A stretch of 64,000 bases of DNA from Georgenia thermotolerans. Lineage in GTDB: Bacteria; Actinomycetota; Actinomycetes; Actinomycetales; Actinomycetaceae. The stretch spans positions 1-64,000 of the forward strand of contig NZ_VUKF01000006.1 in NCBI RefSeq assembly GCF_009193185.1, in the 5' to 3' direction. Under the pieces are notes generated by a model. That model ran no database searches and was not told the origin of the DNA. It was given only the letters and a program-made list of their open reading frames with translations. The translations under genes were made by a program, and so were the position numbers. The stretch's first letter is position 1. Each line of letters starts with the position of its first letter. This document shows positions 45,482 through 62,880 of the stretch, piece by piece.

Positions 45482-46669
45482 TCAGAGCAGCGACATCGCC
45501 TGGCGGGCGATCGCCAGCTCCTCGTTGGTGGGCACCACGAGCACGGTCACCCGCGAGCCGTCCGCGGAGATGACCCGCGGCTCCTTTGAGCGCTGGGCGT
45601 TCTTCTCCGGGTCGAGCTCGATGCCGAGGAAGCCGAGCCCGGCCACCGCCCCGGCGCGCACGACGTCGTCGTTCTCCCCGACCCCGGCGGTGAAGGCCAG
45701 CGCGTCCAGCCCGCCCATGACCGCGGCGTAGGCGCCGACGTACTTGCGCAGCCGGTGGGTGTAGACGTCCAGGCCGAGCTTGGCGGCGGCGTCGCCCTCC
45801 TCGATGAGGCGGTGGACCTGGCGCAGGTCGTTCTCCCCGGTCAGGCCCTTCAGGCCGGAGCGCTTGTTGAACAGGTCGTCGATCTCGTCGACGCTCATCC
45901 CCGCGTTGCGGGCCAGGTGGAACACCGTGGCCGGGTCGATGTCGCCGGTGCGGGTGCCCATGACCAGCCCCTCGAGCGGGGTCAGGCCCATGGAGGTGTC
46001 CACCGCCCGCCCGCCGACCACGGCGGAGGCGGAGGCGCCGTTGCCCAGGTGCAGGACGATCTGGCGCAGGTCGTCGCGGCCGAGCAGCTCGCTCACCTTC
46101 GCCGAGACGTACTGGTGGGAGGTGCCGTGGGCGCCGTAGCGGCGCACCGAGTACCTCTCGGCCACCTCGCGGTCCAGCGCGTAGGTGGCGGCGTCGTCGG
46201 GCAGGCCCTGGAAGAAGGCGGTGTCGAAGACGACGACGTGCGGCACGTCGGGCAGCAGCATCCGCCCCACCTGGATGCCGCGCAGGTTCGCCGGGTTGTG
46301 CAGCGGGGCCAGGGGCGAGAGCCGCTCGATGGTGGCGACGACGTCGTCGTCGACCAGCGCCGGCCCGGCGAACCGCCGCCCGCCCTGGACCACCCGGTGG
46401 CCGACGGCGACGATGCCCGCCTCGGCCAGATCCGGGCCGACCTCCTGGAACAGCTCGAGCACCTGACGCAGGCCGTCGCCGTGGTCGAGCACCCGGTCGT
46501 GCCGCTCGGTGACCTCGCCGTCGTTGCGGTGCTCGATGTGCCCCGCGCTCTCCCCGATGCGCTCGACGAGCCCCGAGGCCAGCGCGGTGCCCGCGTCGGG
46601 GTCGACCAGCTGGTACTTGATGGACGAGGACCCCGAGTTGATGACGAGGACGGTGCGGCTGGCGCTCAT
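45482..46669 (-). CDS. ackA: Acetate kinase
   Basis: Converts acetyl phosphate and ADP to acetate and ATP. The 395-aa product begins VLVINSGSSSIKYQLVD. Further blocks are GHRVVQGG, VVVFDTAFFQGLP, GAHGTSHQYVS, LHLGNGASASAV and ALAFTAGVGEN, all typical of the ASKHA acetokinases. ATG 46669 overlaps the pta stop (ATGA). Together with pta and the upstream phosphoketolase gene it makes an ATP-yielding acetyl-phosphate branch. Confidence 0.97.
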   Translation of the reverse strand: MSASRTVLVINSGSSSIKYQLVDPDAGTALASGLVERIGESAGHIEHRNDGEVTERHDRVLDHGDGLRQVLELFQEVGPDLAEAGIVAVGHRVVQGGRRFAGPALVDDDVVATIERLSPLAPLHNPANLRGIQVGRMLLPDVPHVVVFDTAFFQGLPDDAATYALDREVAERYSVRRYGAHGTSHQYVSAKVSELLGRDDLRQIVLHLGNGASASAVVGGRAVDTSMGLTPLEGLVMGTRTGDIDPATVFHLARNAGMSVDEIDDLFNKRSGLKGLTGENDLRQVHRLIEEGDAAAKLGLDVYTHRLRKYVGAYAAVMGGLDALAFTAGVGENDDVVRAGAVAGLGFLGIELDPEKNAQRSKEPRVISADGSRVTVLVVPTNEELAIARQAMSLL

Positions 46670-48762
46670 GCGTGGATCTCCTTGCTGGCGGGGACGGGCT
46701 CGGCCGCGGCCGCCTGGGCCTGGACCGCCGTGATGGCGACCGTGTTGACGATGTCCTGCACCAGCGCCCCACGCGAGAGGTCGTTGACGGGCTTGTTCAG
46801 GCCCTGGAGCACGGGCCCGATGGCCACGGCGCCGGCGGAGCGCTGGACCGCCTTGTAGGTGTTGTTGCCGGTGTTGAGGTCGGGGAAGACGAAGACCGTC
46901 GCGCGCCCGGCGACGTCGGAGTCGGGCAGCTTGGTCTTGGCCACCGAGGCGTCCACGGCGGCGTCGTACTGGATGGGGCCCTCGACGAAGAGGTCGGGGC
47001 GGCGCTCGCGGACGAGGCGGGTGGCGGTGCGGACCTTCTCGACGTCGGCCCCCGCGCCGGACTCGCCGGTGGAGTAGGACAGCATCGCCACCCGCGGCTC
47101 GACGTCGAACTGGGCGGCGGTGGCGGCCGACTCGATCGCGATGTCCGCCAGCTGCTCGGCGGTGGGGTCGGGGTTGACGGCGCAGTCGCCGTAGACGAGC
47201 ACCCGGTCGGCCAGGCACATGAGGAACACCGAGGACACGATCGCCGTGCCCGGCTTGGTCCGGATGATCTCGAAGGACGGCTTGATGGTGTGCGCGGTGG
47301 TGTGCGCGGCGCCGGAGACCATCCCGTCGGCCTGGCCGGACTGGACCATGAGGGTGCCGAAGTAGGACACGTCGCGCACGATCTCGCGGGCCCGGTCGAT
47401 GGTCATGCCCTTGTGGGCGCGCAGGTGGGCGTACGACTCGGCGAACGGCTCGAGCAGCTCGGAGGTGGCCGGGTCGACGAGCTGCGCCCCCTCGAGGTTG
47501 AGGCCGAGCCCGGCCGCGCGGGAGCGGATGCGCGCCGGGTCCCCGAGGATCGTCAGGTCCGCCACCTGGCGGGAGAGCAGCGTGGACGCGGCGCGCAGGA
47601 TGCGGTCGTCCTCGCCCTCGGGCAGGACGATGCGCTTGCGGTCCGCCCGCGCCCGCTCGAGCAGGGCCGACTCGAACATCAGCGGGGTGATCACCTCGCT
47701 GCGCGGGACGTCGAGGGTGTGCAGGAGCGCCTCGGCGTCGACGTGCTGCTCGAAGTTGCCCAGCGCGAGGTCCCGCTTGCGCTGGGTGCCGCGCGAGACC
47801 ACCCCGCGGGTGGAGGCCACGATGCGGGCCGACTCGTAGGTGTCGTGGTCGGTGGAGATGACCGGCAGGCGCTGGCCCAGGCCCTCGACCATCTTCGTCA
47901 CCTGGGGCGAGGGCCGGTAGCCGCCGTTGAGCACGATCCCGGAGAGGGAGGGGAAGGTCCCCGACGCGTGCGCCATGACGAGGGTGATGAGCACCTCCGG
48001 ACGGTCGCCGGCGGCGATGGCCAGCATGCCCTCCTTGAGCCGCTCGAGGATGTGCTCGGTGTTCATGCCCGAGACGAGCATGTGCTCGGCCTCGCGGTCG
48101 AGCAGCGCGTCGTCGCCGAGGATGAGCTCGCCGTCCAGGGCCCGCATGAGGTCGCGCACCACCGGCGCGGACAGCAGCGGCACCTCCGGCAGCGCCCACG
48201 CCGGCCGGCCGCGCTCGCCCAGCGCCTCGCGCACGGCCTGGAGCTGGTCGGGGGCGCACCGGTTGGCGAGCACGCCCACCGTGGTGGCGTGGTCGTGGGC
48301 GATCTCGTCGATGGCCAGGTCGGCGACGGCGGCGACCTCGGCGGGCGTGCGGTCCAGGGCGCTGACGACGAGGAGGACCGGGGCGCCGAGGTTCGCGGCC
48401 ACCCGGGCGTTGAAGGCGAGCTCGGCCGGCCCGGCCACGTCGGTGTAGTCCGAGCCGACGACGATGACGACCTCGTTGTCCCGCTCGACGGTGCGGAAGC
48501 GCTCGATGATCCGGCTCAGGGCGGCGTCGGGGTCGGCGTGGACGTCCTCGTAGGTCACGCCCAGCGCGTCCTCGTAGCTGACGTTGAGGCCGCCGTGGCC
48601 GAGGAGCAGGTCGACGACGGTGTCCCGCTCGTCCTTCCGGGTCACCGGCCGGAACACGCCGACCTTCTCCACCCGGCGCACGAACAGGTCCACCAGGCCC
48701 AGCGCCACGGTGGACTTGCCGGTGTAGCCCTCCGGCGAGGCGATGTAGATGCTCCGCGCCAC
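46666..48762 (-). CDS. pta: Phosphate acetyltransferase (long form)
   Basis: Interconverts acetyl-CoA and acetyl phosphate. The 698-aa product is the long form: an N-terminal P-loop domain (YIASPEGYTGKSTVALG, residues 6-22) with a DRTGG-type middle domain (about 215-330), then the catalytic domain (about 365-690) with LPEGEDDRILRAAS, MVSGAAHTTAHTIKP and YGDCAVNPDPT. GTG 48762 follows AGGGAGGGA. It lies 145 nt downstream of xfp and is coupled to ackA. The N-terminal domain is usually regulatory. Confidence 0.96.
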   Translation of the reverse strand: MARSIYIASPEGYTGKSTVALGLVDLFVRRVEKVGVFRPVTRKDERDTVVDLLLGHGGLNVSYEDALGVTYEDVHADPDAALSRIIERFRTVERDNEVVIVVGSDYTDVAGPAELAFNARVAANLGAPVLLVVSALDRTPAEVAAVADLAIDEIAHDHATTVGVLANRCAPDQLQAVREALGERGRPAWALPEVPLLSAPVVRDLMRALDGELILGDDALLDREAEHMLVSGMNTEHILERLKEGMLAIAAGDRPEVLITLVMAHASGTFPSLSGIVLNGGYRPSPQVTKMVEGLGQRLPVISTDHDTYESARIVASTRGVVSRGTQRKRDLALGNFEQHVDAEALLHTLDVPRSEVITPLMFESALLERARADRKRIVLPEGEDDRILRAASTLLSRQVADLTILGDPARIRSRAAGLGLNLEGAQLVDPATSELLEPFAESYAHLRAHKGMTIDRAREIVRDVSYFGTLMVQSGQADGMVSGAAHTTAHTIKPSFEIIRTKPGTAIVSSVFLMCLADRVLVYGDCAVNPDPTAEQLADIAIESAATAAQFDVEPRVAMLSYSTGESGAGADVEKVRTATRLVRERRPDLFVEGPIQYDAAVDASVAKTKLPDSDVAGRATVFVFPDLNTGNNTYKAVQRSAGAVAIGPVLQGLNKPVNDLSRGALVQDIVNTVAITAVQAQAAAAEPVPASKEIHA

Positions 48763-48800
48763 TGCGCTGGTCCCTCCCTGTCGATCGGAGGCCGCCCGGC

Positions 48801-48892
48801 CCGCGCGGGGGCGGACTCAGGCGGCCGTGTCGGATGCTCTCCGACGCCGGGCGGGGGCCGGTGGGACCGAAGGCCCACCCGCCCCCGCGCGG
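48801..48892 (-). promoter_or_regulatory. Competing stem-loops in the xfp-pta intergenic region
   Basis: CCGCCCCCGCGCGG (48879-48892) can pair either with GCGGGGGC (48851-48858), forming a compact hairpin with an inner GTGGG/CCCAC stem, or with the perfect complement at 48801-48814. In the xfp-to-pta direction the compact hairpin forms first. It could attenuate pta-ackA relative to xfp or protect an mRNA end. Confidence 0.5.
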
Positions 48893-48907
48893 TGCCCGCG
48901 GTGGGCG

Positions 48908-51415
48908 TTACTCGTTGTCGCCGCCGGTGGCGAGGCTGGCGGCCGGGCCGCCCGTCTCGGTGGCGGTCTCGCCGACGTCGGGCCACACCCAGTCGGCGAC
49001 GCGCGGGATGTCCTCGCCGTGCTCGCGGGTGTACATGCGGGCCTCGAGCCGGGCGTCGATCATCTTCTGGCGCAGCGGGCCGTACTTCTCGCCCAGGCCC
49101 GGCACCCGGTCGATGACGTCCATGACCAGGTGGTACCGGTCGAGGTCGTTGAGCATGACCATGTCGAACGGCGTGGTGGTGGTGCCCTCCTCCTTGTACC
49201 CGCGCACGTGGATGTTCGGGTGACCGTGGCGGCGGTAGGTGAGGCGGTGGATGAGCCACGGGTAGCCGTGGTAGGCGAACACGACCGGCTTGTCGGTGGT
49301 GAAGATCGTGTCGAACGCCCGGTCGCTCAGCCCGTGCGGGTGCTCCTTCTCGTCCTGCAGCCGCATGAGGTCGACGACGTTGACCACGCGGACCTTCAGC
49401 TCGGGGACGAACCGGCGCAGCAGGTCGGCCGCGGCGAGGGTCTCCAGCGTGGGCACGTCACCGGCGCAGCCGAGGACGACGTCGGGCGCCTCGCCCTCGA
49501 CCTCGGTGCCGGCCCAGTCCCAGATGCCCAGGCCACGGGCGCAGTGCTTGATCGCCTCGTCCACGCTGAGGAAGCTCGGCGCGGGCTGCTTGCCGGCGAC
49601 GACCACGTTGACGTACTGCTTCGAGCGCAGCACGTGGTCGTAGGTGGCGAGCAGGGTGTTGGTGTCCGGCGGCAGGTACACCCGGATGATGTCGGCCTTC
49701 TTGTTGACCACGTGGTCGATGAAGCCGGGGTCCTGGTGGGAGAAGCCGTTGTGGTCCTGGCGCCACACGTGCGAGGACAGCAGGTAGTTGAGGGACGCGA
49801 TGGGCCGGCGCCAGGGGATGTGGTTGGTGACCTTCAGCCACTTGGCGTGCTGGTTGAACATCGAGTCGACGATGTGGATGAACGCCTCGTAGGAGTTCAT
49901 CATCCCGTGCCGGCCCGTGAGGAGGTAGCCCTCCAGCCAGCCCTGGCACTGGTGCTCGGAGAGCACCTCCATGACACGGCCCGCCCGGGCGAGGTGGTCG
50001 TCGTCGTCGGTGGGCAGGTACTCGGCGTTCCACTGCTTGTTGGTGACCTCGTAGACGGCCTGCAGACGGTTCGAGGCGGTCTCGTCGGGGCCGAAGATCC
50101 GGAAGTTGTCCGGGTTGAGGCGGATGACCTCCGTGAGGTACTGGCCCAGGACGCGGGTGGCCTCGGCCATCGGGGCGCCCGGGGTCCGGACCTCGACGGC
50201 GAAGTCGCGCCAGTCGGGCATGCGGAGGTCCTTGAGCAGGAGGCCGCCGTTGGTCACCGGGTTGGCGCTCATGCGCAGGTAGCCGGTGGGCGCCAGCGCG
50301 GCGATCTCCGGGTTGAGCCTGCCCGAGGCGTCGAACAGCTCGTCGGCGCGGTAGCTCTTCAGCCAGGTCTCGAGGTCCTTGAGGTGCTCGGCGGTGTCGC
50401 GCGCGTTGGCCAGCGGCACCTGGTGCGAGCGCCAGGAGTTCTCGGTGCGCTTGCCGTCGATCTCCTTCGGGCCGGTCCACCCCTTGGGGGTCTTGAAGAC
50501 GATCATCGGCCACTTCGGGCGCTCGAGCTGGTCCTCGGGGGTGGTCGCGGCCTTGGCCTTGATGTCGGCGATCTCGTCCAGGACGACGTCGAGCAGCTCG
50601 GCGAAGCGGCGGTGGAAGGCGGCCGGGGTGTCGCCCTCGAAGCCGCCCTCGAAGAAGTGGGGCTTGTGGCCGTACCCGCGCATGAGGTCGGCCAGCTCCT
50701 CCTCGGGGATGCGGGCCAGGACCGTGGGGTTGGCGATCTTGTACCCGTTGAGGTGCAGGATCGGCAGGACCACGCCGTCCTTCGCCGGGTCGACGAACTT
50801 GTTGGAGTGCCACGACGTCGCCAGCGGGCCGGTCTCGGCCTCGCCGTCGCCGACCACCGCGAAGACGAGCAGGTCGGGGTTGTCGAACGCGGCGCCGTAG
50901 GCGTGGGACAGGGCGTAGCCCAGCTCGCCGCCCTCGTGGATGGAGCCGGGGGTCTCCGGTGCCACGTGGGAGGGGATGCCGCCGGGGAAGGAGAACTGCT
51001 TGAACAGCCGGCGCATGCCCTCCTCGTCCTGCGTGATGTCGGGGTAGGTCTCGGTGTAGGTGCCCTCGAGGTAGGTGTTGGCCACGAGCCCGGGGCCGCC
51101 GTGGCCGGGCCCGGTGAGGTACATCGCGCTGAGCTCGCGCTCGGCGATGACGCGGTTCATGTGGGCGTAGAGGAAGTTCAGCCCCGGGGTGGTGCCCCAG
51201 TGGCCCAGCAGGCGCGGCTTGACGTCGTCGCGGCTCAGCGGGGTGCGCAGGAGCGGGTTGTTCAGCAGGTAGATCTGGCCGACCGAGAGGTAGTTGGCCG
51301 CTCGCCACCAGGCGTCGACGCGCTCCAGCGTCTCGTCGTCCAGCGGGGCCGTGGTGCTCTCCGCGCGATGGCGCCAGGCGCTGGTGGCGGCGCCGGCTGT
51401 GGTGGTCGTGCTCAT
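48908..51415 (-). CDS. xfp: Phosphoketolase (xylulose-5-P/fructose-6-P)
   Basis: TPP enzyme splitting xylulose-5-phosphate (and often fructose-6-phosphate) with phosphate into acetyl phosphate plus an aldose phosphate. The 835-aa product carries both family signatures: [20 protein letters not shown] (about residues 164-183) and the TPP motif [22 protein letters not shown] 51415 is preceded by GAGGAG; an open frame extends further back without homology. It is the first gene of xfp-pta-ackA, so acetyl phosphate made here can yield ATP (AckA) or acetyl-CoA (Pta). Confidence 0.97.
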
Positions 51416-51555
51416 GTCTCGGATCTCCTCGATAGGTCTCCCCTTGACACGACCCGGAGCCGTGCGTGACCGCGCCCGCGGGCCTGTCGAGGCCTCATTC
51501 CGACCTCGCCAGTGTCCACCATCTGCCCCGTTCCTGCGCCCTCGGGAGGGCGGAT

Positions 51556-51597
51556 TTCCGCGGAAGCGCGGGCGTCTGTGGGAACACCCACAGACGC
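51556..51597. promoter_or_regulatory. Inverted repeats in the xfp-SURF1 divergent region
   Basis: GCGTCTGTGGG (51572-51582), AACA, CCCACAGACGC (51587-51597) is a perfect 11-bp inverted repeat. Next to it TTCCGCGGAA (51556-51565) is a perfect palindrome. They lie 21-60 bp upstream of the SURF1 -10 and about 140-180 bp upstream of xfp. They are candidate operators for either gene. Confidence 0.45.
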
Positions 51598-51617
51598 GAG
51601 GCACACGGGCGGACACG

Positions 51618-51629
51618 TAGTCTGGGCCC
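51618..51629 (+). promoter_or_regulatory. Leaderless promoter -10 element for the SURF1 gene
   Basis: TAGTCT (51618-51623) lies 6 nt before GTG 51630. Confidence 0.6.
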
Positions 51630-52616
51630 GTGGACCCACGCCCTGTCGCCGGCCGCCCCGGCCCCGCCGCGCCCGACGGCGCCGGGGCGGGTGAGGCGCC
51701 GGCGCGCGACGGCGACCGCGAGGCCCACGTGCCCGGCGTCGCCGCTCGCGCCCCGCGAGGGGGCCGCGGCGCACGCATGACGGGGCAGCGGTCGGACTAC
51801 CTGCGGGCGGCCCTGACCCCGCGCCTGATCGGCATCTTCGTCCTCCTGCTCGCCGCCGCGGTGGTGTGCGTGCGTCTGGGCGCCTGGCAGCTCGACCGCG
51901 CGGCGATCCGCGGTGCGGCCAAGGCCGAGGCCGCCCACGCCGCAACCCTTGCCGCCGACCCGGTGCCGCTGGCCGACGTGCTGCAGCCGCAGACGACCTT
52001 CACCGCCAAGGAACTCGCCCGCACGGTCGAGGTGACCGGCACCTACCGGGCCGATCAGCAGGTCCTCGTCCCGGGCCGCGAGGTGGACGGGCACCCCGCC
52101 ACCCTCGTCGTCACCGCCCTGTGGGTGTCCGAGGGGCCGGACGCCGGCGCCATGCTGCCGGTGGTGCGCGGCTGGGTCCCGGCGGAGGCCATCCGCACCG
52201 ACGGGCGGGCGGAGCCCGCCGACGCCGCGACCGCCGCCCTGCTGCGCGTGCCCGACGGCGTGCAGCGGGTCACCGGTCACCTGGGCGCCTCCGAGGTCGC
52301 CGAGTCCGGTGCGTACCCCGAGGGGATGGTCGGCGCCATCAGCTCGGCTCAGCTCGCGAACCTCTGGGGTGGGCCTACCTTCAGCGGCTACCTCGTGGAG
52401 TTCACCGAGAACCCCGACGGCACCCGCTCCGCCGTGGCGCCGACCGGGCTGTCGCACGCCCCACCGCCGGCCATGGCGCAGGAGACCGGGCTGAACATCC
52501 AGAACCTCGCCTACGCCGTCGAGTGGGTGATCTTCGGCGGCTTCGCCCTGGTCCTGTGGTGGCGGATGGTGCGCGACGAGGTCATCTACCGCCGCGAGGA
52601 GGCGGCCCTGGCCTGA
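51630..52616 (+). CDS. SURF1 family cytochrome oxidase assembly protein
   Basis: 328-aa membrane protein of the SURF1 family, which helps assemble haem-copper cytochrome c oxidase. The first membrane segment is at about 63-85 ([24 protein letters not shown], with the conserved GxWQL(D/x)R) and the second near the C-terminus ([20 protein letters not shown]). The exported domain between them has [17 protein letters not shown] and LPVVRGWVP. The leaderless GTG 51630 gives a 49-residue Pro/Ala-rich tail; starting at ATG 51777 would remove it. Confidence 0.9.
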
Positions 52617-53839: not shown

Positions 53840-54634
53840 ATGGGGCGACTGGTTCTGGGGGTGCTCTGTGCCGACGCTCCCCAGCAGGACCTGACCCGCG
53901 CCGACGTCGCGGTCGTGCGCCTCGATCCCGACGATGCCACCCCCTGGGCGAACCTCGCCACCGGAGCGACCCACGCCGTCGTGCTGGGCGAACGCCGGCA
54001 CGAGCTCGCCGTGCGCCACCACGCGGCCCTCGCCGCGGACCTGGGCCTGGCCGTCGCCTGGCGGGCCGAGATGCTCGGCCCGCTCGCCCTGGTCGCCGCC
54101 GCGCGCTACACCGCCCAGAACGCCCCGAGCGTCGGCCTCGCCCCGGCCGTGCTGGACGCCGCCGTGGCCGCCCTGTGGAACGGCGCCTGGGTCCCGAAGG
54201 TCGCCCGGCTCGACCACCCCGCCCCGAGCCTCGCCCAGCACCTGCGCTCCTGGCTGCCCGTGCCCGGCGGCTACCTCGTCACCCTCACCGGCGAGCCCCG
54301 GGTGGAGCGGGTGACGTCGGCGCGTGCCGCGGCGGCCGGCCGGCGCGGGCACCTGCTCCGCTCCGAGGGCGCCCTGCCGGCCGCGGCGCGCGACCTCGCC
54401 CAGGACCGCTCCGGCGCGGCGGACGTCACCGCCGTGGCCGGGTTCGACCGGCCGGCCGCGGGGCGGTTCGGCCCCGGCGCCGTCGAGCTGGTCGCCCTTC
54501 CCGAGAACGTCGGCCCGCCGGCGCCCGGCCCGCACGTCGCGTGCCCGGCGTGCGGCGTGCAGGTCCCCGCGGGGTTCTGCCCCTACTGCCGGGTCCGCCG
54601 GGCCGAGACCGCACACGCAGGAGCTGAGGCATGA
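53840..54634 (+). CDS. Hypothetical protein with C-terminal zinc ribbon, first gene of Tad operon
   Basis: Not recognised. The 264-aa soluble protein has an Ala/Arg-rich body with no membrane segment. The last 35 residues contain CPACGVQVPAGFCPYC, two CxxC pairs that should bind one zinc, like zinc ribbons that recruit or bridge proteins. GGGGGGAGGGA precedes the ATG by 4 nt. It overlaps the CpaB-like gene by ATGA, so it belongs to the pilus operon. A regulatory or assembly role is inferred from position only. Confidence 0.75.
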   Translation: MGRLVLGVLCADAPQQDLTRADVAVVRLDPDDATPWANLATGATHAVVLGERRHELAVRHHAALAADLGLAVAWRAEMLGPLALVAAARYTAQNAPSVGLAPAVLDAAVAALWNGAWVPKVARLDHPAPSLAQHLRSWLPVPGGYLVTLTGEPRVERVTSARAAAAGRRGHLLRSEGALPAAARDLAQDRSGAADVTAVAGFDRPAAGRFGPGAVELVALPENVGPPAPGPHVACPACGVQVPAGFCPYCRVRRAETAHAGAEA

Positions 54635-55359
54635 ACCCCCGTCAGCGCCGCGGCGTCCTCTTCATGCTCCTGGCGGTGCTGGTGGCCGGCGGGGTCTTCC
54701 TCGTCGTCCTCCAGTACCTCTCGAGCGTGGCGAGCGCCGTCGGCCCCACCACCACCGTCTACCGCGCGTCCGGGCCGCTGCCGGCCTACGCCACCCTCAC
54801 CCCGGACGCCCTCGTCGAGGACGAGGTGCCCACCCGGTGGCTCTCCGACTCGGCCCAGGTGCCCCTCGAGGACCTGCTCGAGCGCCGGGTCGGCGTCGCC
54901 CTCGCCGAGGGCACCATGGTCACCGCGGACATGCTCGTCCCGCCGTCCGACCTCAGCCCCACCGAGCGCGAGATCGCCATCGAGGTCGACGCCGTCACCG
55001 GCATCGCCGGGCGGGTGGAGCCGGGCGACTTCGTCGACATCTACGCCGTCTTCGCCGACGTGCCCGGCCTGCCCCAGCAGGTGCGGGTCCTCGTGCGCAG
55101 CGTGCGGGTGGTCACCGTCGCCGGCGAGCGGACCGTCGTCCAGGAGGACGGCGCCGGGCTGGGGGAGGAGCAGGTCATCCCCGTCACGCTCGCGCTGGAG
55201 CCCAACGACGCCCTCGCCGTCACCTACGCCGACGCCTTCGCCGCCGAGGTCCGCCTCGTGGGCCTGCCCGCCGGCACCGCCGAGGACCGCACCGGCGAGC
55301 AGGACCGCTACGACGCCGGCCAGCTCGGCGGCCAGCCGATCCCGGAAGGGGTGAACTGA
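54631..55359 (+). CDS. cpaB: Flp pilus assembly protein CpaB/RcpC (SAF domain)
   Basis: 242-aa envelope protein of the Tad system. One N-terminal membrane segment (GVLFMLLAVLVAGGVFLVVLQYL), then a SAF domain (about 42-105: YRASGPLPAYATLTPDALVE, and RRVGVALAEGTMVTADML) and the RcpC domain (IAIEVDAVTGIAGRVEPGDFVDIY). In Gram-negatives the homologue works with the secretin. No secretin is needed here, so it probably binds the cell wall. Coupled to its neighbours. Confidence 0.9.
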   Translation: MNPRQRRGVLFMLLAVLVAGGVFLVVLQYLSSVASAVGPTTTVYRASGPLPAYATLTPDALVEDEVPTRWLSDSAQVPLEDLLERRVGVALAEGTMVTADMLVPPSDLSPTEREIAIEVDAVTGIAGRVEPGDFVDIYAVFADVPGLPQQVRVLVRSVRVVTVAGERTVVQEDGAGLGEEQVIPVTLALEPNDALAVTYADAFAAEVRLVGLPAGTAEDRTGEQDRYDAGQLGGQPIPEGVN

Positions 55360-55360
55360 C

Positions 55361-56974
55361 ATGGCCACCCAGGTGGTGATCGGCTGCGCCGACCAGACCA
55401 TGGCCGCCGCGATCCGCGCCCAGCTCGGCGAGGCGGCCGACGTCGAGCTGCTCGCCGTCGCCGAGAGCACCAGCGAGCTCGTGCGCACGGTGGTCGAGCG
55501 CGACCCCCAGCTCGTCGTCGTCCACGACGCCCTCGGCCCCGAGCCCGTCCACCAGGCGGTGCGCGACCTGTCCCTGCGCCGGCCCGCCTCGGTCGTCCTC
55601 ATGGTGGTCGACGGCAGCGCCGAGTCCATCTCCGACGCCATGAACGCCGGCGCCCGCGGCGTGCTCACCCACCCGTTCTCCTTCACCGAGGTCCAGCAGC
55701 GGGTCATGGGGGCCATCGAGTGGTCCCGCCACCTGCGGCGGATGCTGACCACCGCGGGGGAGGACGCGACGACGGACGGCTCGCGCGGCCGCGTGGTCGC
55801 CGTCACCGGCACCAAGGGCGGGGTCGGGACGACGACGATCGCCACCCACCTGGCCTGGGACGTCCGCCGGCAGACCCCGGGCCTCAAGGTCCTGCTCGTC
55901 GACCTCGACCTGGAGAAGGGCGACGTCACCAGCCTCATCGAGGCGAAGTACCGCACCTCGGTCGCCGACCTGGCCAAGGTCGCCGACGACCTGTCCGCGC
56001 ACACGGTCATGGACGCCGTCTTCGAGCACGAGTCCGGGCTGTCGCTGCTGCTGCCGCCGGAGGACATCCGCGACGTCGAGTGGGTCACCCCCGCCGCGGT
56101 GCGGCTGATCATGGCCCTGCTGCGCCAGCAGTTCGACCTCGTCGTCGTCGATGCCGGCGCCCACGTCACCCCGGTCCAGGCCGCGGTGGTGGAGCTGGCC
56201 GACGAGGTGGTCGCCGTCGTCACCCCGGACCTCATCAGCGTGCGGGCGCTGCGCCGCAACGTCGCCTTCTGGGAGTCCCTGGCCGCCCGGAAGCCGGCGG
56301 AGGTGCGGGTCCTGGTCAACAAGCACAGCCGCGCGCAGGAGGTGCAGCCGGAGACGCTGCGCCAGCTCTCGCCCGCGCCCATGCTGCCCGCGGTCCTGCC
56401 GGAGATCACCCGGAGCCTGGAGAAGGCGGTGAACTCCCGCGCGCCCGAGCTCGTCGACGACAAGAAGTGGTGGGAGCGGCTGCGCGAGGTCGGCTCCGCC
56501 CTCGGCGTGCTCGCCGCGCTCGAGCGGCGCCGCGAGGAGCCGCCGCCTCCGGAGGCCGACGGCGGGGCGCCGTCGACCCGGCGCGGCCGCCGCCGGCAGG
56601 GGGCCGGGCTGCGGCGCCGGCGCGACGAGGGCTCGGCGAGCGTCGAGCTGCTCGGGGTGCTGCCCGTCGCGCTGCTCGTCCTCGCCCTGCTCTGGCAGCT
56701 CGGCATGGCGGGCCTGACCTACGTGTGGACCGGGCACGCCGCCGCGGCGGCCGCGCGCACCGTGGCCCTGGGCGAGCGCGACGGCGGCGTCATCGAGCGC
56801 GCGGCGGTGGCCGAGCTGCCCGCCGGCGTCGCCGACGCGGCCGCCGTCTCCTACGCCCCCGCCTCGGAGAAGGTCACCGTCCGGGTCGACGTGCCCCTCG
56901 CCGCCCCGGGCCTGGCGCGACTGCCCTGGGAGGTCGAGGTCAGCCGCAACGTCGTGAAGGAGCCCCGGCTGTGA
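55361..56974 (+). CDS. CpaE-like ATPase fused to a TadE-type pseudopilin
   Basis: 537-aa protein with three parts. Residues 1-125: receiver-like domain without a clear phosphoacceptor site. Residues 143-390: MinD/ParA-type ATPase of the CpaE/TadZ family (deviant Walker A TGTKGGVGTTT, then VLLVDLDLEKGDVTSLIE, and FDLVVVDAGAH), which places the pilus machine at its cell site. Residues 391-424: an Arg-rich linker ending RRRRDEG. Residues 425-537: a TadE-type pseudopilin beginning SASVELLGVLP with one hydrophobic helix. Gly424 followed by a Glu at +5 (Glu429) is a type IV prepilin cleavage site exactly at the junction. No stop or start codon separates the parts. The TadE gene that follows is a second, normal copy. 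Confidence 0.88.
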   Translation: MATQVVIGCADQTMAAAIRAQLGEAADVELLAVAESTSELVRTVVERDPQLVVVHDALGPEPVHQAVRDLSLRRPASVVLMVVDGSAESISDAMNAGARGVLTHPFSFTEVQQRVMGAIEWSRHLRRMLTTAGEDATTDGSRGRVVAVTGTKGGVGTTTIATHLAWDVRRQTPGLKVLLVDLDLEKGDVTSLIEAKYRTSVADLAKVADDLSAHTVMDAVFEHESGLSLLLPPEDIRDVEWVTPAAVRLIMALLRQQFDLVVVDAGAHVTPVQAAVVELADEVVAVVTPDLISVRALRRNVAFWESLAARKPAEVRVLVNKHSRAQEVQPETLRQLSPAPMLPAVLPEITRSLEKAVNSRAPELVDDKKWWERLREVGSALGVLAALERRREEPPPPEADGGAPSTRRGRRRQGAGLRRRRDEGSASVELLGVLPVALLVLALLWQLGMAGLTYVWTGHAAAAAARTVALGERDGGVIERAAVAELPAGVADAAAVSYAPASEKVTVRVDVPLAAPGLARLPWEVEVSRNVVKEPRL

Positions 56975-57351
56975 GCGGCGCCCGCGTCACCGCCGTGCGC
57001 CGCCCCGCCGCGGCGCCCCGGCGCCTGCGCGGCGCCGGGTCCGACCGCGGCTCGGCCGCCCTCGAGATGCTCGGCGTCCTCCCGGTCGTCGTGCTCGTGG
57101 CCCTGGCCACGCTGCAGGTCCTCGCCGGGGTCTACACCGTGCACGCCGCCAACCAGGCCGTGCGCGACGGCGCCCGTGCCGCGAGCCTGGGCGGGTCGGT
57201 GTCCGCGGCCGTCGACCGCTCGCTGCCCGGTACCCTCACGCCCCGCGAGCTCTCCGGCACCGGCGGGGAGGTCCGGCTCGTCCTCGACGTCCCCCGCATG
57301 GCGCCGTTCATCCCGGAGCTGCGGGTCACCCGCACGGCGGTCATGCCATGA
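56971..57351 (+). CDS. TadE-like pseudopilin
   Basis: 126-aa minor pilin-like protein. A 27-residue Arg-rich leader ends in Gly27, followed by SAALE (Glu at +5) and a hydrophobic helix (MLGVLPVVVLVALATLQVLAGVY), the type IV prepilin pattern cut by the TadV/CpaA peptidase. The exported domain (about 60-126) is short. GTG 56971 overlaps the fusion gene (GTGA) and cpaF follows by ATGA. It is the closest relative of the pseudopilin half of the preceding gene. Confidence 0.85.
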   Translation: MSGARVTAVRRPAAAPRRLRGAGSDRGSAALEMLGVLPVVVLVALATLQVLAGVYTVHAANQAVRDGARAASLGGSVSAAVDRSLPGTLTPRELSGTGGEVRLVLDVPRMAPFIPELRVTRTAVMP

Positions 57352-58811
57352 GGGGCTTCAGCGACTGGGCGGGCGCCGGCGCCGGCGCCGGCGGCCGCAC
57401 CCGCGCCGACCTCTCCCTGGCCAAGCAGGAGCTCGACGACGGGCTCGTCGAGAGCTTCAAGCGCAAGCTGCTCGACGAGGTCGACCTGTACGAGCTCGGC
57501 CGCCTCGAGCTGGCCCAGCGGCGCATCCGCCTCGAGCGGGTCGTCGCGCACCTGGTCTCCACCGAGGGCGTCATCCTCACCACCCGGGAGCGCAACGCCC
57601 TCATCCGGCGGGTCGTGGACGAGTCCATCGGCCTGGGCGTCCTCGAGCCGCTGATCGCCGACGAGACCGTCAGCGAGATCATGGTCAACGGCCACGGCAC
57701 CATCTACGTCGAGCGGTTCGGCCAGCTCGAGCGCACCGCGAACGCGTTCGCCTCCGAGGCGCAGCTGCGCCAGACCATCGACCGGATCGTCTCCACCGTC
57801 AACCGCCGCGTGGACGAGTCCAGCCCCATGGTCGACGCCCGCCTGCCCCCCGACGAGCGCATGCCCCGCGGCGCCCGCGTCCACGTCGTCCTCCCGCCCC
57901 TGGCGCTGGACGGGCCGACGATGACCATCCGGCTCTTCCCCAAGGCCTACGGCCTGGACGAGCTCCTCGCCCGCCAGAGCCTCGACGTCGCCACCGCGAA
58001 CCTGCTGGCGGCGTGCGTGCGGGCCCGGCTCAACGTCATCGTCTCGGGCGGGACCGCCTCCGGGAAGACGACGATGCTCAACGCGCTGTCGGCGTTCATC
58101 CAGCCCAAGCAGCGCATCATCACCATCGAGGACGCCGCCGAGCTGTCCCTGTCCCAGGAGCACGTGGTGCGCCTGGAGACCCGGCCGGCCAACGTCGAGG
58201 GCCACGGCCAGGTCACCATCCGCGACCTGGTGCGCAACGCCCTGCGCATGCGCCCGGACCGCATCATCGTCGGCGAGGTCCGCGGCGGCGAGGCGCTCGA
58301 CATGCTCCAGGCCATGAACACCGGCCACGAGGGCTCCCTGGCCACCGTGCACGCCAACACCAGCTACGACGCGCTCAACCGCCTCGAGACGCTCGCCTCG
58401 ATGAGCGACGTCGAGATCCCCTTCCACGCGCTGCGCGACCAGGTCAACAACGCCATCGACGTGGTCCTCCAGCTCACCCGCGGCTCCGACGGCACCCGCC
58501 GGGTGACCGAGGTCGGCTACGTCACCTCCCGCAACCGCGAGGACTTCGCCATCGCGCCGGTCATGTACTGGGACCCCGAGCGGGTGGGCGCGGACGGCCG
58601 GGAGGGGGCCTTCGTCCAGCTGCCGGTGCCCGAGCAGCTCCTCGACCGCCTCCGGGTGGCCGGCGAGCTCGACGACGACGGCCGCCCCCGTCCCGTCGTG
58701 GACGTCGGCGCCCGTCCCGTCGCCGACGTCGCGACCCCGGCGGCCGGCCCGGTCGACGCCGGCCCGCCGCCCCCGCCGCCGCTGGCCCAGCCCGCCGGAG
58801 CGCGGCCATGA
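57348..58811 (+). CDS. cpaF: Tad secretion ATPase CpaF/TadA
   Basis: Hexameric motor ATPase that powers Flp pilus assembly from the cytoplasm. The 487-aa product has an N-terminal domain to about 215, Walker A GGTASGKTT (Lys240), Asp box ITIEDAAELSL, Walker B MRPDRIIVGEVRGGEALDM and His box NTGHEGSLATVHAN. MTIRLFPKAYGLDEL and the ISEIMVNG-like VSEIMVNGHG are typical of CpaF. The last 60 residues are Pro-rich. Coupled to both neighbours. Confidence 0.96.
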   Translation: MRGFSDWAGAGAGAGGRTRADLSLAKQELDDGLVESFKRKLLDEVDLYELGRLELAQRRIRLERVVAHLVSTEGVILTTRERNALIRRVVDESIGLGVLEPLIADETVSEIMVNGHGTIYVERFGQLERTANAFASEAQLRQTIDRIVSTVNRRVDESSPMVDARLPPDERMPRGARVHVVLPPLALDGPTMTIRLFPKAYGLDELLARQSLDVATANLLAACVRARLNVIVSGGTASGKTTMLNALSAFIQPKQRIITIEDAAELSLSQEHVVRLETRPANVEGHGQVTIRDLVRNALRMRPDRIIVGEVRGGEALDMLQAMNTGHEGSLATVHANTSYDALNRLETLASMSDVEIPFHALRDQVNNAIDVVLQLTRGSDGTRRVTEVGYVTSRNREDFAIAPVMYWDPERVGADGREGAFVQLPVPEQLLDRLRVAGELDDDGRPRPVVDVGARPVADVATPAAGPVDAGPPPPPPLAQPAGARP

Positions 58812-59737
58812 CGACGGTGCTGCTCGTCCTCCTCGGGCTGCTCGCCGCCACGGTGCTCCTGCTGGCGGGCCTGCGCGACCTCGCCCTTGCCTCCAACCGC
58901 CGCCGCGCCCTCGCCGAGGCGGTCGCGACCGCCGACGGCCGCGCCGGCCGCACGCTCGTCGCCCGGCTCGACCGCGCGGTGCGCGCCACCCGGCCCGGGC
59001 GCTGGCTCGAGCGCCAGCTCATGCTCGCCGGCATGCAGGACCGGCCGGTCGTCGTCGTCGTCGCCGTGGCGCTGGGCGCCGCCGCCGCGGTGGGCTGGGT
59101 GCTCGGCGCGGGGCTGGCCCCGATCTTCGGCCTCGGCGGCGTGGGCGCGTTCGTGCTGGGCATCCGCGCCTACATCGGCCGGGCGCGAGAGCGTCGCCGC
59201 GAGCAGTTCGTCGCCCAGATGCCCGAGCTCGCCCGGGTGCTGTCGAACGCGACGAACGCCGGGCTCTCCATCGCCACGGCCCTGGAGCGGGCCTCCCGCG
59301 AGCTCGCCGCGCCCGCCGGGCCGGAGCTGGCCCGGGTGGCCTCCCGCATGCACTTCGGGGCGAGCCTGCACACCGCCGTCGCCGAGCTGGAGGAGCGGCT
59401 GCCCTCCCGGGAGGTCTCCGTCCTCGTCTCCACGCTCGTCGTCAGCGCCCGCAGCGGCGGGTCGCTGGTGTCCTCCCTGCGCGACATCGCCGACACCCTC
59501 GACGAGCGCAAGGAGGTGCGCCGGGAGGTGCGCACCACCCTGGCCCAGTCCACCGCGACCGGGTACCTCGTGATCGTCCTGGGCATCGGGCTGCTCTTCC
59601 TGCTCAACCTGCTCCAGCCCGGCACGGTCCAGGCCATGACCCGGGAGTTCCTCGGCCAGGCCGCCCTCGTCGTCGGCGGAGCGCTGTTCGTGGGCGGGTT
59701 CGTCGCGATCCGCCGCATGACGAGGTTCGACGGATGA
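58808..59737 (+). CDS. tadB: Tad platform membrane protein TadB
   Basis: 309-aa inner-membrane platform protein (GspF domain) that connects the motor to the pilus. An N-terminal membrane segment (1-21), two more near 75-110, a GspF-type cytoplasmic domain (QFVAQMPELARVLSNATNAGLSIATALER, and LVVSARSGGSLVSSLRDIADTLDERKEVRREV) and two C-terminal segments. Overlaps cpaF by ATGA and tadC by ATGA. Confidence 0.92.
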   Translation: MTTVLLVLLGLLAATVLLLAGLRDLALASNRRRALAEAVATADGRAGRTLVARLDRAVRATRPGRWLERQLMLAGMQDRPVVVVVAVALGAAAAVGWVLGAGLAPIFGLGGVGAFVLGIRAYIGRARERRREQFVAQMPELARVLSNATNAGLSIATALERASRELAAPAGPELARVASRMHFGASLHTAVAELEERLPSREVSVLVSTLVVSARSGGSLVSSLRDIADTLDERKEVRREVRTTLAQSTATGYLVIVLGIGLLFLLNLLQPGTVQAMTREFLGQAALVVGGALFVGGFVAIRRMTRFDG

Positions 59738-60639
59738 GCGCCGCCCTCGCCCTCGCCCTCGCCGGCGCCGGCGCGGGAGCCGCGGTGCTGTTCCTCGTCG
59801 GCTACCGCCTGCTGCGCACCGACCCCGCCAGCCACCTCGACGCCGAGGACCTCGTGCTCCTGCGCCGCGAGCAGCGCCGACGGGCCGAGGGCGTCTCCCC
59901 GCTGCGGCGCCTGGCGGCCGCCCTGGCCCCGCGGCTGCGGCGCCTGCTCACCCGCCGCCAGGTCGAGGCGCTGAGCACGCGGATCGAGGAGGCGGGCCGC
60001 CCCGGCGGGCTCACCGTCGACGGGTTCCTCGAGCGGACCGCCCTGTGGGTCATCCTCGTCACCCCCCTCGCGCTGCTGCTCCTGGCGATGGGCAACGTGC
60101 CCATCGCGCTGCTGTCGCTGACCGTCCCGGTCCTCATGCCGCTGGGGAGCCTGGCCGGGGCCCAGCGCCGCCGCCGTGAGCGCATCGACCGGGACCTGCC
60201 CGACTTCCTCGACATCCTCGCCGTCACCGTCAGCGCCGGGGTGAACTTCCGCGCCGCGCTCGTGCGCGTCGCCGAGCGGTTCAAGGGCCCCCTGGCCGAC
60301 GAGGTCAACCTCACCATCTCCCAGATCGCCAACGGCCTGCCGCTGCGCGACGCGTTCCAGGCCATGCGCGGGCGCAGCGGCTCGGAGAGCGTGGGCCAGT
60401 TCGTCTCCGCCCTGCTGCAGTCCCAGGAGCTCGGCGCCCCGCTGGCGGAGTCCCTCAACCAGATCGCCGCGGACATGCGCCGCGACAGCGCCCAGCGCCA
60501 GCGCCGCAAGGCCGCCCAGACCGCGCCCCGGGTGAGCCTGGTGACCTCCGTCGTCCTCCTGCCCGGCGCCCTGATCTTCATCATCGTCGGCTTCATCGTG
60601 GGCTCCGACGTCGACTTCGGCGCCTTCCTGGGCGGGTGA
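59734..60639 (+). CDS. tadC: Tad platform membrane protein TadC
   Basis: 301-aa partner of TadB, also with a GspF domain (RDLPDFLDILAVTVSAGVNFRAALVRVAE, and VSALLQSQELGAPLAESLNQIAADMRRDSAQRQRR). Membrane segments at about 4-22, 105-145 and 270-295. TadB and TadC form the platform at the base of the pilus. Coupled to the sensor kinase gene by GTGA, which ties the two-component genes to this operon. Confidence 0.92.
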   Translation: MSAALALALAGAGAGAAVLFLVGYRLLRTDPASHLDAEDLVLLRREQRRRAEGVSPLRRLAAALAPRLRRLLTRRQVEALSTRIEEAGRPGGLTVDGFLERTALWVILVTPLALLLLAMGNVPIALLSLTVPVLMPLGSLAGAQRRRRERIDRDLPDFLDILAVTVSAGVNFRAALVRVAERFKGPLADEVNLTISQIANGLPLRDAFQAMRGRSGSESVGQFVSALLQSQELGAPLAESLNQIAADMRRDSAQRQRRKAAQTAPRVSLVTSVVLLPGALIFIIVGFIVGSDVDFGAFLGG

Positions 60640-61808
60640 GACCGGTGAGCACCAGCGCGCCGCTGCACCGCCACGCCGGGACGATGGTGCGCGCCGCCCT
60701 GCTGGCCCGCCTGGCCAGCCTGGGCGCCGCGCTGGTGTGGCTGGTCGTCGACGGCGCCGGCCCGGCCGCGCTGGTCGCCGTGGTCGTGCTCAGCCTGGAG
60801 ACCTTCGCGGCCCTGGCCGTCCCCGGGGTGCGTGACCTCGTCGCCCGGCACCCGCTCGCCGTCGTCGCCGACTCGGTCATGGTCTTCGTGGTGCTGGCGA
60901 TGGTGGGGACCACCTCGCCGGTGGTGCTCGCGACGCTGTCGACCGCCCTGATGTACGGCGTCCTGTTCGAGCGGCGCCTCGCCGCGCTCCTCGGGGTCAT
61001 GCTGGTCGCGCTCTACGTGCTGGCCTCCGAGGCGACCCTGGACCCGGAGCCGTCCTTCATGGGGGTGCTCGGCATCCCCACCCTGTTCCTGTCCATGCTC
61101 GCGCTCGGCGTGGCCGCCCGCGGGTCCTACGCCCGGCAGGCCCGGCTGGCCGCGGCGGCCGCGGCCGAGAGCACGGCCCGCGCGGCCGCCGAGGAGCGGG
61201 CCCGGCTGGCCCGCGAGCTGCACGACTCCCTGGGCAAGTCCCTCCACGGGATCTCCCTGCTCGCCGACGGGCTGCCGCAGTGGATCGACAAGGACGTCGA
61301 CAGGGCCCGGCAGTACGCCGCCGCCCTGGCCGACGGCGCCCGGCAGGCCGCAGCCGAGACCCGCCAGATCGTGACGATGGCCCGCATGGACCAGCCCGAC
61401 CGGCCCCTGGCCGAGGTGCTGCACGAGATGTGCGCCCGCTGGGAGGCCGCCCAGGAGGTGCCCTGCACGTTCACCCACCGCTGCGTCGTCGACCTGAGCA
61501 CCGACGCGCGGTACGAGGTGGTCGCCATCGTGGGGGAGGCGCTGGAGAACGTGGCGCGGCACGCGGCGGCGTCGCGGGTGCAGGTGGAGCTGGCGCGCCG
61601 GGACGACGGGGCCATCGAGGTGCTCGTGGCCGACGACGGCCGGGGGTTCTGCCCACGGCCCGACGGGACGAGCCCGCGCGGGCACTACGGCCTGACCGGC
61701 ATGCAGGAGCGGGCGCGCCTGGTCGGCGCCGAGCTGACGATCGTCGCCGCGCCCGGCGAGGGCACACGGGTGCGGGTGGTCTGCCGAGAGGAAGGGCACG
61801 ATGACTGA
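60636..61808 (+). CDS. Membrane sensor histidine kinase (NarL-type partner)
   Basis: 390-aa kinase. Four or five membrane segments occupy residues 18-160 with almost no extracytoplasmic domain, so it probably senses a membrane or small-molecule signal. A coiled stretch (165-190) leads to HisKA_3: ARLARELHDSLGKSLHGIS with His196. The ATPase domain has EALENVARHAAASRVQV, ADDGRGF and GLTGMQERARLVGA. GTG 60636 overlaps tadC (GTGA); GTG 60645 is an alternative. Its end overlaps the response regulator start by 8 nt. Confidence 0.92.
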   Translation: MRPVSTSAPLHRHAGTMVRAALLARLASLGAALVWLVVDGAGPAALVAVVVLSLETFAALAVPGVRDLVARHPLAVVADSVMVFVVLAMVGTTSPVVLATLSTALMYGVLFERRLAALLGVMLVALYVLASEATLDPEPSFMGVLGIPTLFLSMLALGVAARGSYARQARLAAAAAAESTARAAAEERARLARELHDSLGKSLHGISLLADGLPQWIDKDVDRARQYAAALADGARQAAAETRQIVTMARMDQPDRPLAEVLHEMCARWEAAQEVPCTFTHRCVVDLSTDARYEVVAIVGEALENVARHAAASRVQVELARRDDGAIEVLVADDGRGFCPRPDGTSPRGHYGLTGMQERARLVGAELTIVAAPGEGTRVRVVCREEGHDD

Positions 61809-62490
61809 GCTGAGCGAGCTGGTCCCGCCGGAGACCGACCCGGCGGCGCTGTGGCGCGCCCAGGTGGGCGTGGCGATCGTCGACGACAACGCGGTGATCC
61901 GCATGGGGCTCCGGGCGCTGGTCGAGGCCTCCGACGCGCTGCGCTTCGTCGGCGAGGCCGGCGACGGGGAGGCCGCGGTGGACCTGGTGCGGGCGACCCT
62001 GCCGGACGTGGTGCTCCTCGACGTGCGCATGCCACGCCGCGACGGGGTCGCCGTCGCCCGTGAGGTGGCGCAGTGGACCAAGGTGCTCATGCTCACCTAC
62101 TCCGACGCCCCCGAGGTGGTCGAGGCCGCCGTCGAGGCGGGCGCCGGCGGCTACCTCGTGCACGGCCAGTTCGACAGCGGGGAGCTCGAGGCGAGCATCC
62201 TCGCCGTCGCCCGCGGCGCGTTCCTGCTCTCCCCGCCGGCCGCGCAGGCGCTGCGCACCGCCCGGGCCCGGGAGCGGGAGCCGGCCGCGCCGCGGCGGCC
62301 CGAGAACTGCCTGAGCGAGCGGCAGCGGGAGGTCATGGAGGCCATCGCGCAGGGCAAGACGAACGGGGAGATCGCCCGGGAGCTGTTCCTGTCGGAGAAG
62401 ACGGTCAAGAACCACGTCAACCGCATCTTCGCGAGCCTGGGGGTGCGCACGCGGGCGGAGGCGATCGCGTGGTGGCTGTCCGGGGCGTGA
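61801..62490 (+). CDS. NarL/FixJ family response regulator
   Basis: 229-aa regulator. Receiver domain with the acidic pair in AIVDDNAV (Asp28, Asp29), phosphoacceptor Asp74 in VVLLDVRMPRRDG, the Thr/Ser in MLTYSDAP and GAGGYLVHGQ in place of the usual Lys loop (no Lys there). C-terminal LuxR-type HTH: LSERQREVMEAIAQGKTNGEIARELFLSEKTVKNHVNRIF (about 169-208). It is the last gene of the Tad operon and lies directly upstream of the flp pilin gene, its likely target. Confidence 0.93.
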   Translation: MTELSELVPPETDPAALWRAQVGVAIVDDNAVIRMGLRALVEASDALRFVGEAGDGEAAVDLVRATLPDVVLLDVRMPRRDGVAVAREVAQWTKVLMLTYSDAPEVVEAAVEAGAGGYLVHGQFDSGELEASILAVARGAFLLSPPAAQALRTARAREREPAAPRRPENCLSERQREVMEAIAQGKTNGEIARELFLSEKTVKNHVNRIFASLGVRTRAEAIAWWLSGA

Positions 62491-62676: not shown

Positions 62677-62880
62677 ATGTCCACCCGACTCTACGTGCGG
62701 GCCAAGGTCCGCCTGCAGGAGCTGCTCGACCGCCGCGAGGCCGGTCAGGGCACCCTCGAGTACCTCGGCGTCGTCGTCATCGTCGCGATTCTCGTCGTCG
62801 CGGCGGTCACCGCGTTCAACAGCTTCAACCTCGGCGAGAAGATCACGACCCAGCTCGACAAGATCGGCAACGCCGGCTGA
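62677..62880 (+). CDS. flp: Flp pilin, major subunit
   Basis: 67-aa Flp-type IVb prepilin. A 23-residue basic leader ends in Gly23, followed by QGTLEY, which places Glu at +5 and Tyr at +6 of the mature pilin, the hallmark of Flp pilins. The hydrophobic helix LGVVVIVAILVVAAVTAF drives assembly. The mature subunit is only 44 residues. AAGGAG lies 5 nt before the ATG, so it is probably strongly translated. A separate unit from the machinery operon. Confidence 0.95.
   Translation: MSTRLYVRAKVRLQELLDRREAGQGTLEYLGVVVIVAILVVAAVTAFNSFNLGEKITTQLDKIGNAG

What the first reader, a model, noticed from the sequence alone, without database searches (positions are those of the whole stretch)
56561..56700. 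CpaE motor-positioning ATPase and TadE pseudopilin encoded as one polypeptide with a prepilin cleavage site at the joint
The 537-codon frame runs through a complete CpaE/TadZ-like ATPase, an Arg-rich linker and a TadE pseudopilin, with no stop codon and no in-frame ATG/GTG/TTG at the start of the pseudopilin. At the joint the sequence reads RDEG then SASVE: Gly at -1 and Glu at +5, the type IV prepilin peptidase rule, directly before a hydrophobic helix. The following TadE gene (RGSAALE) and Flp (AGQGTLEY) show the same rule. Inference: the ATPase serves as a giant prepilin leader, and TadV/CpaA cuts the polyprotein into a cytoplasmic ATPase and a membrane pseudopilin, giving 1:1 synthesis and delivering the ATPase to the site of pilus assembly.
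Basis: partly seen in the sequence, partly recalled or inferred. Interest (0 to 1): 0.87.

Follow-up and report, generated by a model that had tools for sequence, protein, structure and literature searches.

The report
Pilus ATPase fused to prepilin
In many actinobacteria a pilus-positioning ATPase and a small pilus subunit are encoded as one long protein with a conserved cutting signal at the joint, so the whole ATPase probably acts as an oversized leader that the pilin-cutting enzyme releases.

Summary
ORF 55361-56974 (+, 537 aa) joins a CpaE/TadZ ATPase to a TadE pseudopilin, with no stop and no convincing internal start. It is not a sequencing error: a second genome has the same protein at 98% identity, and 74 distinct loci (the window's included) carry the fusion, inside and outside the window's class of Actinomycetota. 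All 74 have Gly at -1; +5 is Glu in 72 and Asp in 2 (my scan required Glu or Asp at +5). The linker is variable and predicted disordered; a 45-residue helix begins at +1. In 44 related loci the same two genes are separate: the ATPase stops at the equivalent place, and the pilin has its own start and the same site. This natural experiment suggests that the fused protein ends up as two. Best explanation: a polyprotein cut by prepilin peptidase, with a leader of about 424 residues against the 6-51 given in a review. Cleavage is inferred, not shown. Seven searches of an open-access library gave no description of this fusion in listings or in passages of six papers.

The parts
55361..56974 (+). cpaE::tadE fused gene, 537 aa
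   Evidence: same fusion in relatives
55361..55780 (+). N-terminal receiver-like domain of CpaE/TadZ (residues 1-140)
   Evidence: Response_reg stretch 11-115, below Pfam's cut-off; the family profile matches CpaE N-terminal structures 4dad and 4dn6; confident model except residues 134-139
55781..56536 (+). MinD/ParA-like ATPase domain with deviant Walker A (GTKGGVGTTT), residues 141-392
   Evidence: AAA_31; fold matches 3ea0 and 3fkq
56537..56629 (+). Pro/Arg-rich linker, residues 393-423, variable and predicted disordered
   Evidence: pLDDT below 50 at residues 402-426; majority-residue frequency 0.35 (393-415) and 0.20 (416-423)
56630..56647 (+). class III signal peptide motif G|SASVE (Gly424 at -1, Glu429 at +5)
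   Evidence: Gly in 49 of 49 rows of A3, 64 of 64 of the main fused set and 10 of 10 further fused loci
56633..56971 (+). predicted mature TadE pseudopilin, 113 aa: 45-residue helix, then a small beta domain
   Evidence: TadE Pfam 424-466; helix 425-469 in the model
56971..57351 (+). second TadE-like gene (TadF position), GTGA overlap with the fusion
   Evidence: sequence; Pfam TadE; SDRG|SAALE
54631..55359 (+). cpaB/rcpC
   Evidence: RcpC, SAF, TIGR03177
57348..58811 (+). cpaF/tadA motor ATPase
   Evidence: T2SSE
58808..60639 (+). two platform genes (tadB and tadC positions), the first with an ATGA overlap with cpaF
   Evidence: T2SSF in both; overlap
62677..62880 (+). flp major prepilin
   Evidence: no Pfam match; REAG|QGTLEY motif, size 67 aa

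Best explanation
The gene makes one polyprotein. Its TadE helix acts as an internal signal-anchor, leaving the CpaE/TadZ ATPase and the Arg-rich linker in the cytoplasm. A prepilin peptidase cuts after Gly424 at the membrane face. This releases a soluble CpaE of about 424 residues and leaves a mature 113-residue TadE minor pilin free to enter the pilus machinery. The whole ATPase is thus the prepilin leader. Shown here: the continuous frame, its wide conservation, the conserved site, the predicted disorder of the linker, the lack of a conserved internal start, and related lineages that encode the two products separately. Inferred: topology, the cut, which peptidase does it, and any benefit (1:1 synthesis, local release).
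For: Fused in 48 of the 80 loci kept by the search for related loci, 30 split, 2 undecidable. 64 distinct fused loci in the main set, the window's included, plus L126 and 9 loci outside the class. Gly at -1 in 74 of 74; +5 Glu in 72, Asp in 2. Linker unconserved, but Gly424 in 49 of 49. pLDDT below 50 at 402-426 and helix from +1. In the 55 codons before the joint 20 of 64 fused loci have no in-frame ATG/GTG/TTG, and 5 of 64 have one with a Shine-Dalgarno match of 5 nt or more, against 28 of 44 split loci. Walker-to-joint in fused (median 267) equals Walker-to-stop in split (median 266) within one residue. The 20 residues before the joint are net positive in 56 of 64. A24 peptidase in 29 of 29 fused genomes searched.
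Against: No experiment shows cleavage. G-x4-E is a general TadE trait and might be kept for other reasons. My scan admitted only Glu or Asp at +5, and its first pass only G, A, S, T or N at -1, so the +5 count is partly built in. No peptidase gene was found on the window's contig, and peptidase presence is weak evidence, as 12 of 14 control genomes have it too. 8 of 64 fused loci are not net positive before the joint. 12 of 49 fused proteins do not match Pfam TadE at E 0.01.
Confidence: 0.73

Rival explanations
1. The fusion is never cut. TadE's helix is a membrane anchor that holds CpaE/TadZ at the pilus base as one protein.
For: The open frame and the helix fit it equally well. Tethering a localisation ATPase to the membrane would make sense.
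Against: Gly -1 is kept in 74 of 74 fused loci while most linker neighbours drift. In 44 related loci CpaE is unanchored, with its stop at the equivalent place.
Confidence: 0.15
2. TadE is made separately from an internal start codon in the fused frame, so the full-length protein is not the source of TadE.
For: 44 of 64 fused loci hold some in-frame ATG/GTG/TTG within 55 codons upstream, and 5 have a fair ribosome-site match. The window also has a CTG seven codons before the Gly codon (by eye).
Against: No conserved position; 20 of 64 have none within 55 codons and 32 of 64 none within 40. The window's near-twin L002 lacks even the window's GTG. CTG and other rare starts were not counted.
Confidence: 0.06
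3. The fused frame is a sequencing or assembly artefact hiding a stop and restart.
For: High-GC draft genome of 116 contigs.
Against: Same frame in a separate genome at 98% identity and in 74 distinct loci in all, one of them (L004) at 55% GC.
Confidence: 0.01
4. The fusion is a neutral by-product of operon compaction: the halves work either way and nothing is gained. This concerns benefit and is compatible with the best explanation.
For: Fused and split states interchange, at least 6 changes on the tree. In 29 of 36 split Streptomycetaceae loci the pilin is in the ATPase frame, so little more than a stop and a start separates the states.
Against: The fused state is seen on the deep branches of the ingroup and persists over long branches.
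Confidence: 0.4

Closest known systems
CpaE/TadZ pilus-localisation ATPase (3fkq, titled NtrC-like two-domain protein from Eubacterium rectale; that it is a TadZ is recalled)
   Same: Receiver-like domain plus MinD-like ATPase with deviant Walker A, in a tad operon
   Different: Here it continues through a linker into a complete TadE pseudopilin
TadE/TadF pseudopilins matured by TadV (Tomich 2006, seen only as a citation)
   Same: G|xxxxE site, hydrophobic helix, small C-terminal domain
   Different: The leader would be about 424 residues with a folded enzyme; PMC6916266 (passages) gives 6-51 residues for leaders
Split cpaE-tadE pairs of Streptomyces, Nocardiopsis and Cutibacterium
   Same: Same gene order, same site, orthologous CpaE
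   Different: A stop and a start codon lie between the two genes
Other pilus gene fusions: PilM-PilN in C. difficile (PMC6916266, passages); TadB-TadC in M. luteus (PMC4322843, passages)
   Same: Two pilus genes in one frame
   Different: Neither fusion includes a prepilin

Membership tests
CpaE/TadZ ATPase | MinD/ParA-type P-loop ATPase with deviant Walker A KGGxGT | tested here: met
   AAA_31 over cut-off in the window protein and matched in 49 of 49 members of A3; K152 to G156 invariant in A3
CpaE/TadZ ATPase | N-terminal receiver-like domain | tested here: met
   Profile matches 4dad and 4dn6, CpaE-related N-terminal structures; Pfam Response_reg below cut-off; Pfam TadZ_N in only 3 of 49
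CpaE/TadZ ATPase | Location in a tad operon | tested here: met
   cpaB, cpaF and two T2SSF genes adjacent; flp by motif
CpaE/TadZ ATPase | Polar or pilus-base localisation | not testable with these tools
   needs microscopy
NCBIfam CpaE_hom_Actino (Ssd) | Score over the curated cut-off | tested here: not met
   52.9 bits against 154.45
TadE pseudopilin | Pfam PF07811 over gathering score | tested here: met
   25.0 bits against 22.9, residues 424-466; 37 of 49 members of A3 match at E 0.01
Prepilin peptidase substrate | Gly or Ala at -1, often Glu at +5, hydrophobic stretch after it | tested here: met
   RDEG|SASVE plus helix 425-469; kept in relatives
Prepilin peptidase substrate | Leader of 6-51 hydrophilic residues | tested here: not met
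   Leader would be 424 residues with folded domains; range from PMC6916266 (passages)
Prepilin peptidase substrate | Actual cleavage | not testable with these tools
   needs a blot or N-terminal sequencing

The most novel reading that the evidence does not exclude
Prepilin peptidase works here as a polyprotein-processing protease: in much of a phylum a complete folded ATPase is a giant prepilin leader, freed at the membrane only once the pseudopilin has inserted, so that release of the ATPase is coupled to pilin maturation.
Probability: 0.45. Interest if true: 0.8.

Novelty: new variant of a known kind. Interest (0 to 1): 0.64.

Why it matters
Both halves are known families, but a pilus polyprotein whose leader is an enzyme would extend the leader length accepted by prepilin peptidases about eightfold over the 6-51 residues given in PMC6916266, and would make them processing proteases. 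Lineages with fused and with split genes give a ready comparison to ask whether coupling ATPase supply to pilin maturation matters in Tad pili of monoderm bacteria, where PMC6916266 (passages) calls it an important question how the assembly complex is held together.

Tried and rejected
Sequencing error: rejected by relatives. Internal start: no conserved start, with split genes as control. Number of fissions inside Streptomycetaceae: not resolved; holding the 36 split rows of a 72-row subset together is not rejected (p-AU 0.098). The tblastn search of plasmids found no match. Literature: seven searches gave no description of a CpaE-TadE fusion in the listings; I read passages of six papers and no whole paper. 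Subscription papers and preprints are not held. Peptidase presence in 29 of 29 fused genomes was set aside as weak; fused loci of named records were not searched for it.

Rows left out. One search took 128 loci (L001-L020, L031-L110, L122-L149). 14 did not match the Walker pattern: 12 distant CpaE loci (L009-L020), L126 and L131. L126 was later read as fused; L131 showed no TadE in the CpaE frame, and I did not look for one beyond it. Three rows had no TadE call: L101 ends at its contig end, L109 was left undecided, and L056 was first read in a wrong frame and re-picked by script as fused. Four loci were dropped as duplicates, judged by identical joint sequence (L122, L128, L129, L130). For L035 the script first chose a wrong joint; one search repeats the counts with it corrected. 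For L075 (split) the script's site is off; its site is SDSG|QVAVEF. The loci are the best hits to a fused query (best 80 of 518), so fused to split is not a frequency in nature. The tree used the quick method and warned of long branches (among them L005, L008, L045, L090, L124), whose places are unsure.

Full report
What is there. ORF 55361-56974 on the plus strand is 537 codons long with no stop. It sits in a tad operon: cpaB (54631-55359), the fusion, a second TadE-like gene overlapping it by GTGA (56971-57351), cpaF (57348-58811), two T2SSF platform genes (58808-60639), a histidine kinase and a LuxR-type regulator (60636-62490), and flp (62677-62880). Pfam finds AAA_31 at residues 144-299 and TadE at 424-466 of the fused protein. 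The joint is RDEG|SASVELLGVLPVALL, with Gly424 at base 56630.

More than chance. In six-frame translation of the 64 kb window, G-x4-E followed by a hydrophobic stretch occurs four times: at this joint, in the next TadE-like gene, in Flp, and once in a minus-strand frame that I did not characterise. All nine TadE matches of this genome have Gly at -1. Seven of nine have Asp or Glu at -3 (L115 and L121 have Ala), and eight of nine have Glu at +5 (L120 has Trp). In the main fused set -3 is Asp in 49 and Glu in 15 of 64. The joint thus looks like the genome's other prepilin sites.

Conservation. Eight orthologues with E below 1e-40 (the window's own among them) were found in the 59 genomes of the relatives search, and all eight are fused with G|x4E (L001-L008). 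Of the 80 loci returned by the search for related loci (best 80 of 518), 48 are fused, 30 split and 2 undecidable. Named fused genera: Cellulomonas, Nocardioides, Knoellia, Phycicoccus, Aeromicrobium, Janibacter, Actinomadura, Marinactinospora, Streptomonospora, Actinorugispora, Streptomyces, Actinacidiphila, Wenjunlia and Solirubrobacter. With the class search, and without four duplicates, the main set holds 64 fused and 44 split loci. L126 and nine loci of the same phylum but outside the window's class (L150-L158) are also fused, which makes 74. All 74 have Gly at -1; +5 is Glu in 72 and Asp in 2 (L043, L154). Three rows had no TadE call, for other reasons (see Tried and rejected). Pfam, which knows nothing of my scan, matches AAA_31 in 49 of 49 and TadE in 37 of 49 members of the alignment used for folding.

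The joint against its surroundings. In that alignment of 49 the majority residue averages 0.65 in the ATPase, 0.35 in residues 393-415 and 0.20 in 416-423, then Gly424 is 49 of 49 and Glu429 0.98. Some linker columns are less free: Asp at -3 is 0.82, and an Arg-rich patch reaches 0.78. AlphaFold (mean pLDDT 89.8, pTM 0.59) gives a confident ATPase, residues 402-426 below 50, and one helix 425-469 starting at +1, followed by a small beta domain. The ATPase matches ParA/MinD structures and the two-domain protein 3fkq. How the two halves lie to each other is not meaningful in this model.

Fused against split. In split loci the ATPase ends at the same distance from the Walker motif (median 266, range 258-321) as the joint in fused ones (median 267, range 247-332). 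Split TadE lies 30-275 bases beyond the ATPase stop with the same site: Gly at -1 and Glu at +5 in 43 of 43 by script, and L075 by eye. Split TadE has an in-frame start in 44 of 44 when looked for up to 89 codons back. Over an equal span of 55 codons, 41 of 44 split loci have a start and 28 of 44 one with a ribosome-site match of 5 or more bases; of fused loci 44 of 64 have some start codon, and 5 of 64 one with such a match. In 29 of 36 split Streptomycetaceae loci the pilin frame is the ATPase frame. On a 115-row tree of the ATPase region (64 fused, 44 split, 7 distant CpaE as outgroup) fused rows occupy the deep branches, and at least 6 changes are needed between fused and split. Split rows are 36 Streptomycetaceae, 7 in a Nocardiopsis clade (3 named) and 1 Cutibacterium; unnamed rows are placed by the tree and family codes. 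Counts of changes do not tell gain from loss; fused-first within this group is the simpler reading, and several long branches are unsure. Within Streptomycetaceae a single split clade is not rejected (p-AU 0.098).

Mechanism. Leaders are described as hydrophilic, 6-51 residues, left in the cytoplasm, with the peptidase acting at the cytoplasmic membrane face (PMC6916266 and PMC10191384, passages). The fusion fits this geometry: the 20 residues before the joint are net positive in 56 of 64 fused loci, neutral in 3 and negative in 5, and disordered in the window's model. The likely outcome is two proteins equal to those of the split lineages. An uncut, membrane-anchored ATPase remains possible (0.15), but it does not explain a -1 Gly kept everywhere in an otherwise loose linker, and split lineages manage without the anchor. 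The genome search found no A24 peptidase on the window's contig; two lie on C47 and C72. All 29 fused genomes with a G handle have at least one. In G264 and G021 one lies within about 2.3 kb of the fusion, and in G292 within about 7 kb (coordinates).

Novelty. Seven searches of an open-access library listed nothing that describes this fusion or an enzyme-sized prepilin leader, and the passages read in six papers do not mention one. Those passages do report that M. luteus lacks TadZ and has a TadB-TadC fusion (PMC4322843). Both halves are known, so this is a new variant of a known kind, with a directly testable claim about prepilin peptidase.

Noticed in passing
60636-62490 (+): A HisKA_3 histidine kinase and a receiver-GerE (LuxR-type) regulator lie between the second T2SSF gene and flp, which suggests dedicated control of the tad operon.
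   Followed up: no
45482-51778 (-): Phosphoketolase (XFP) and phosphate acetyltransferase, with an acetate kinase read by eye, lie together: a phosphoketolase route to acetate.
   Followed up: partly
53840-54634 (+); L008 3524-4132 (-): The gene upstream of cpaB has no Pfam match but a C-terminal CPAC...CPYC ribbon; L008 has a gene with a similar Cys-rich tail (CPSC...CLFC) before its cpaB (by eye).
   Followed up: no
G000 contigs C72 and C94 (L112-L114): The genome has two further tad-type loci with ordinary TadE and Flp-like genes, and a prepilin peptidase on C72; their CpaE are 27-31% identical to the fused one.
   Followed up: partly
L045 (Cutibacterium modestum), around 5278: cpaE and tadE are split and out of frame although the tree places the locus among fused relatives; its branch is long.
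   Followed up: no
L043 and L154, at the joint: These two fused proteins have Asp instead of Glu at +5.
   Followed up: no
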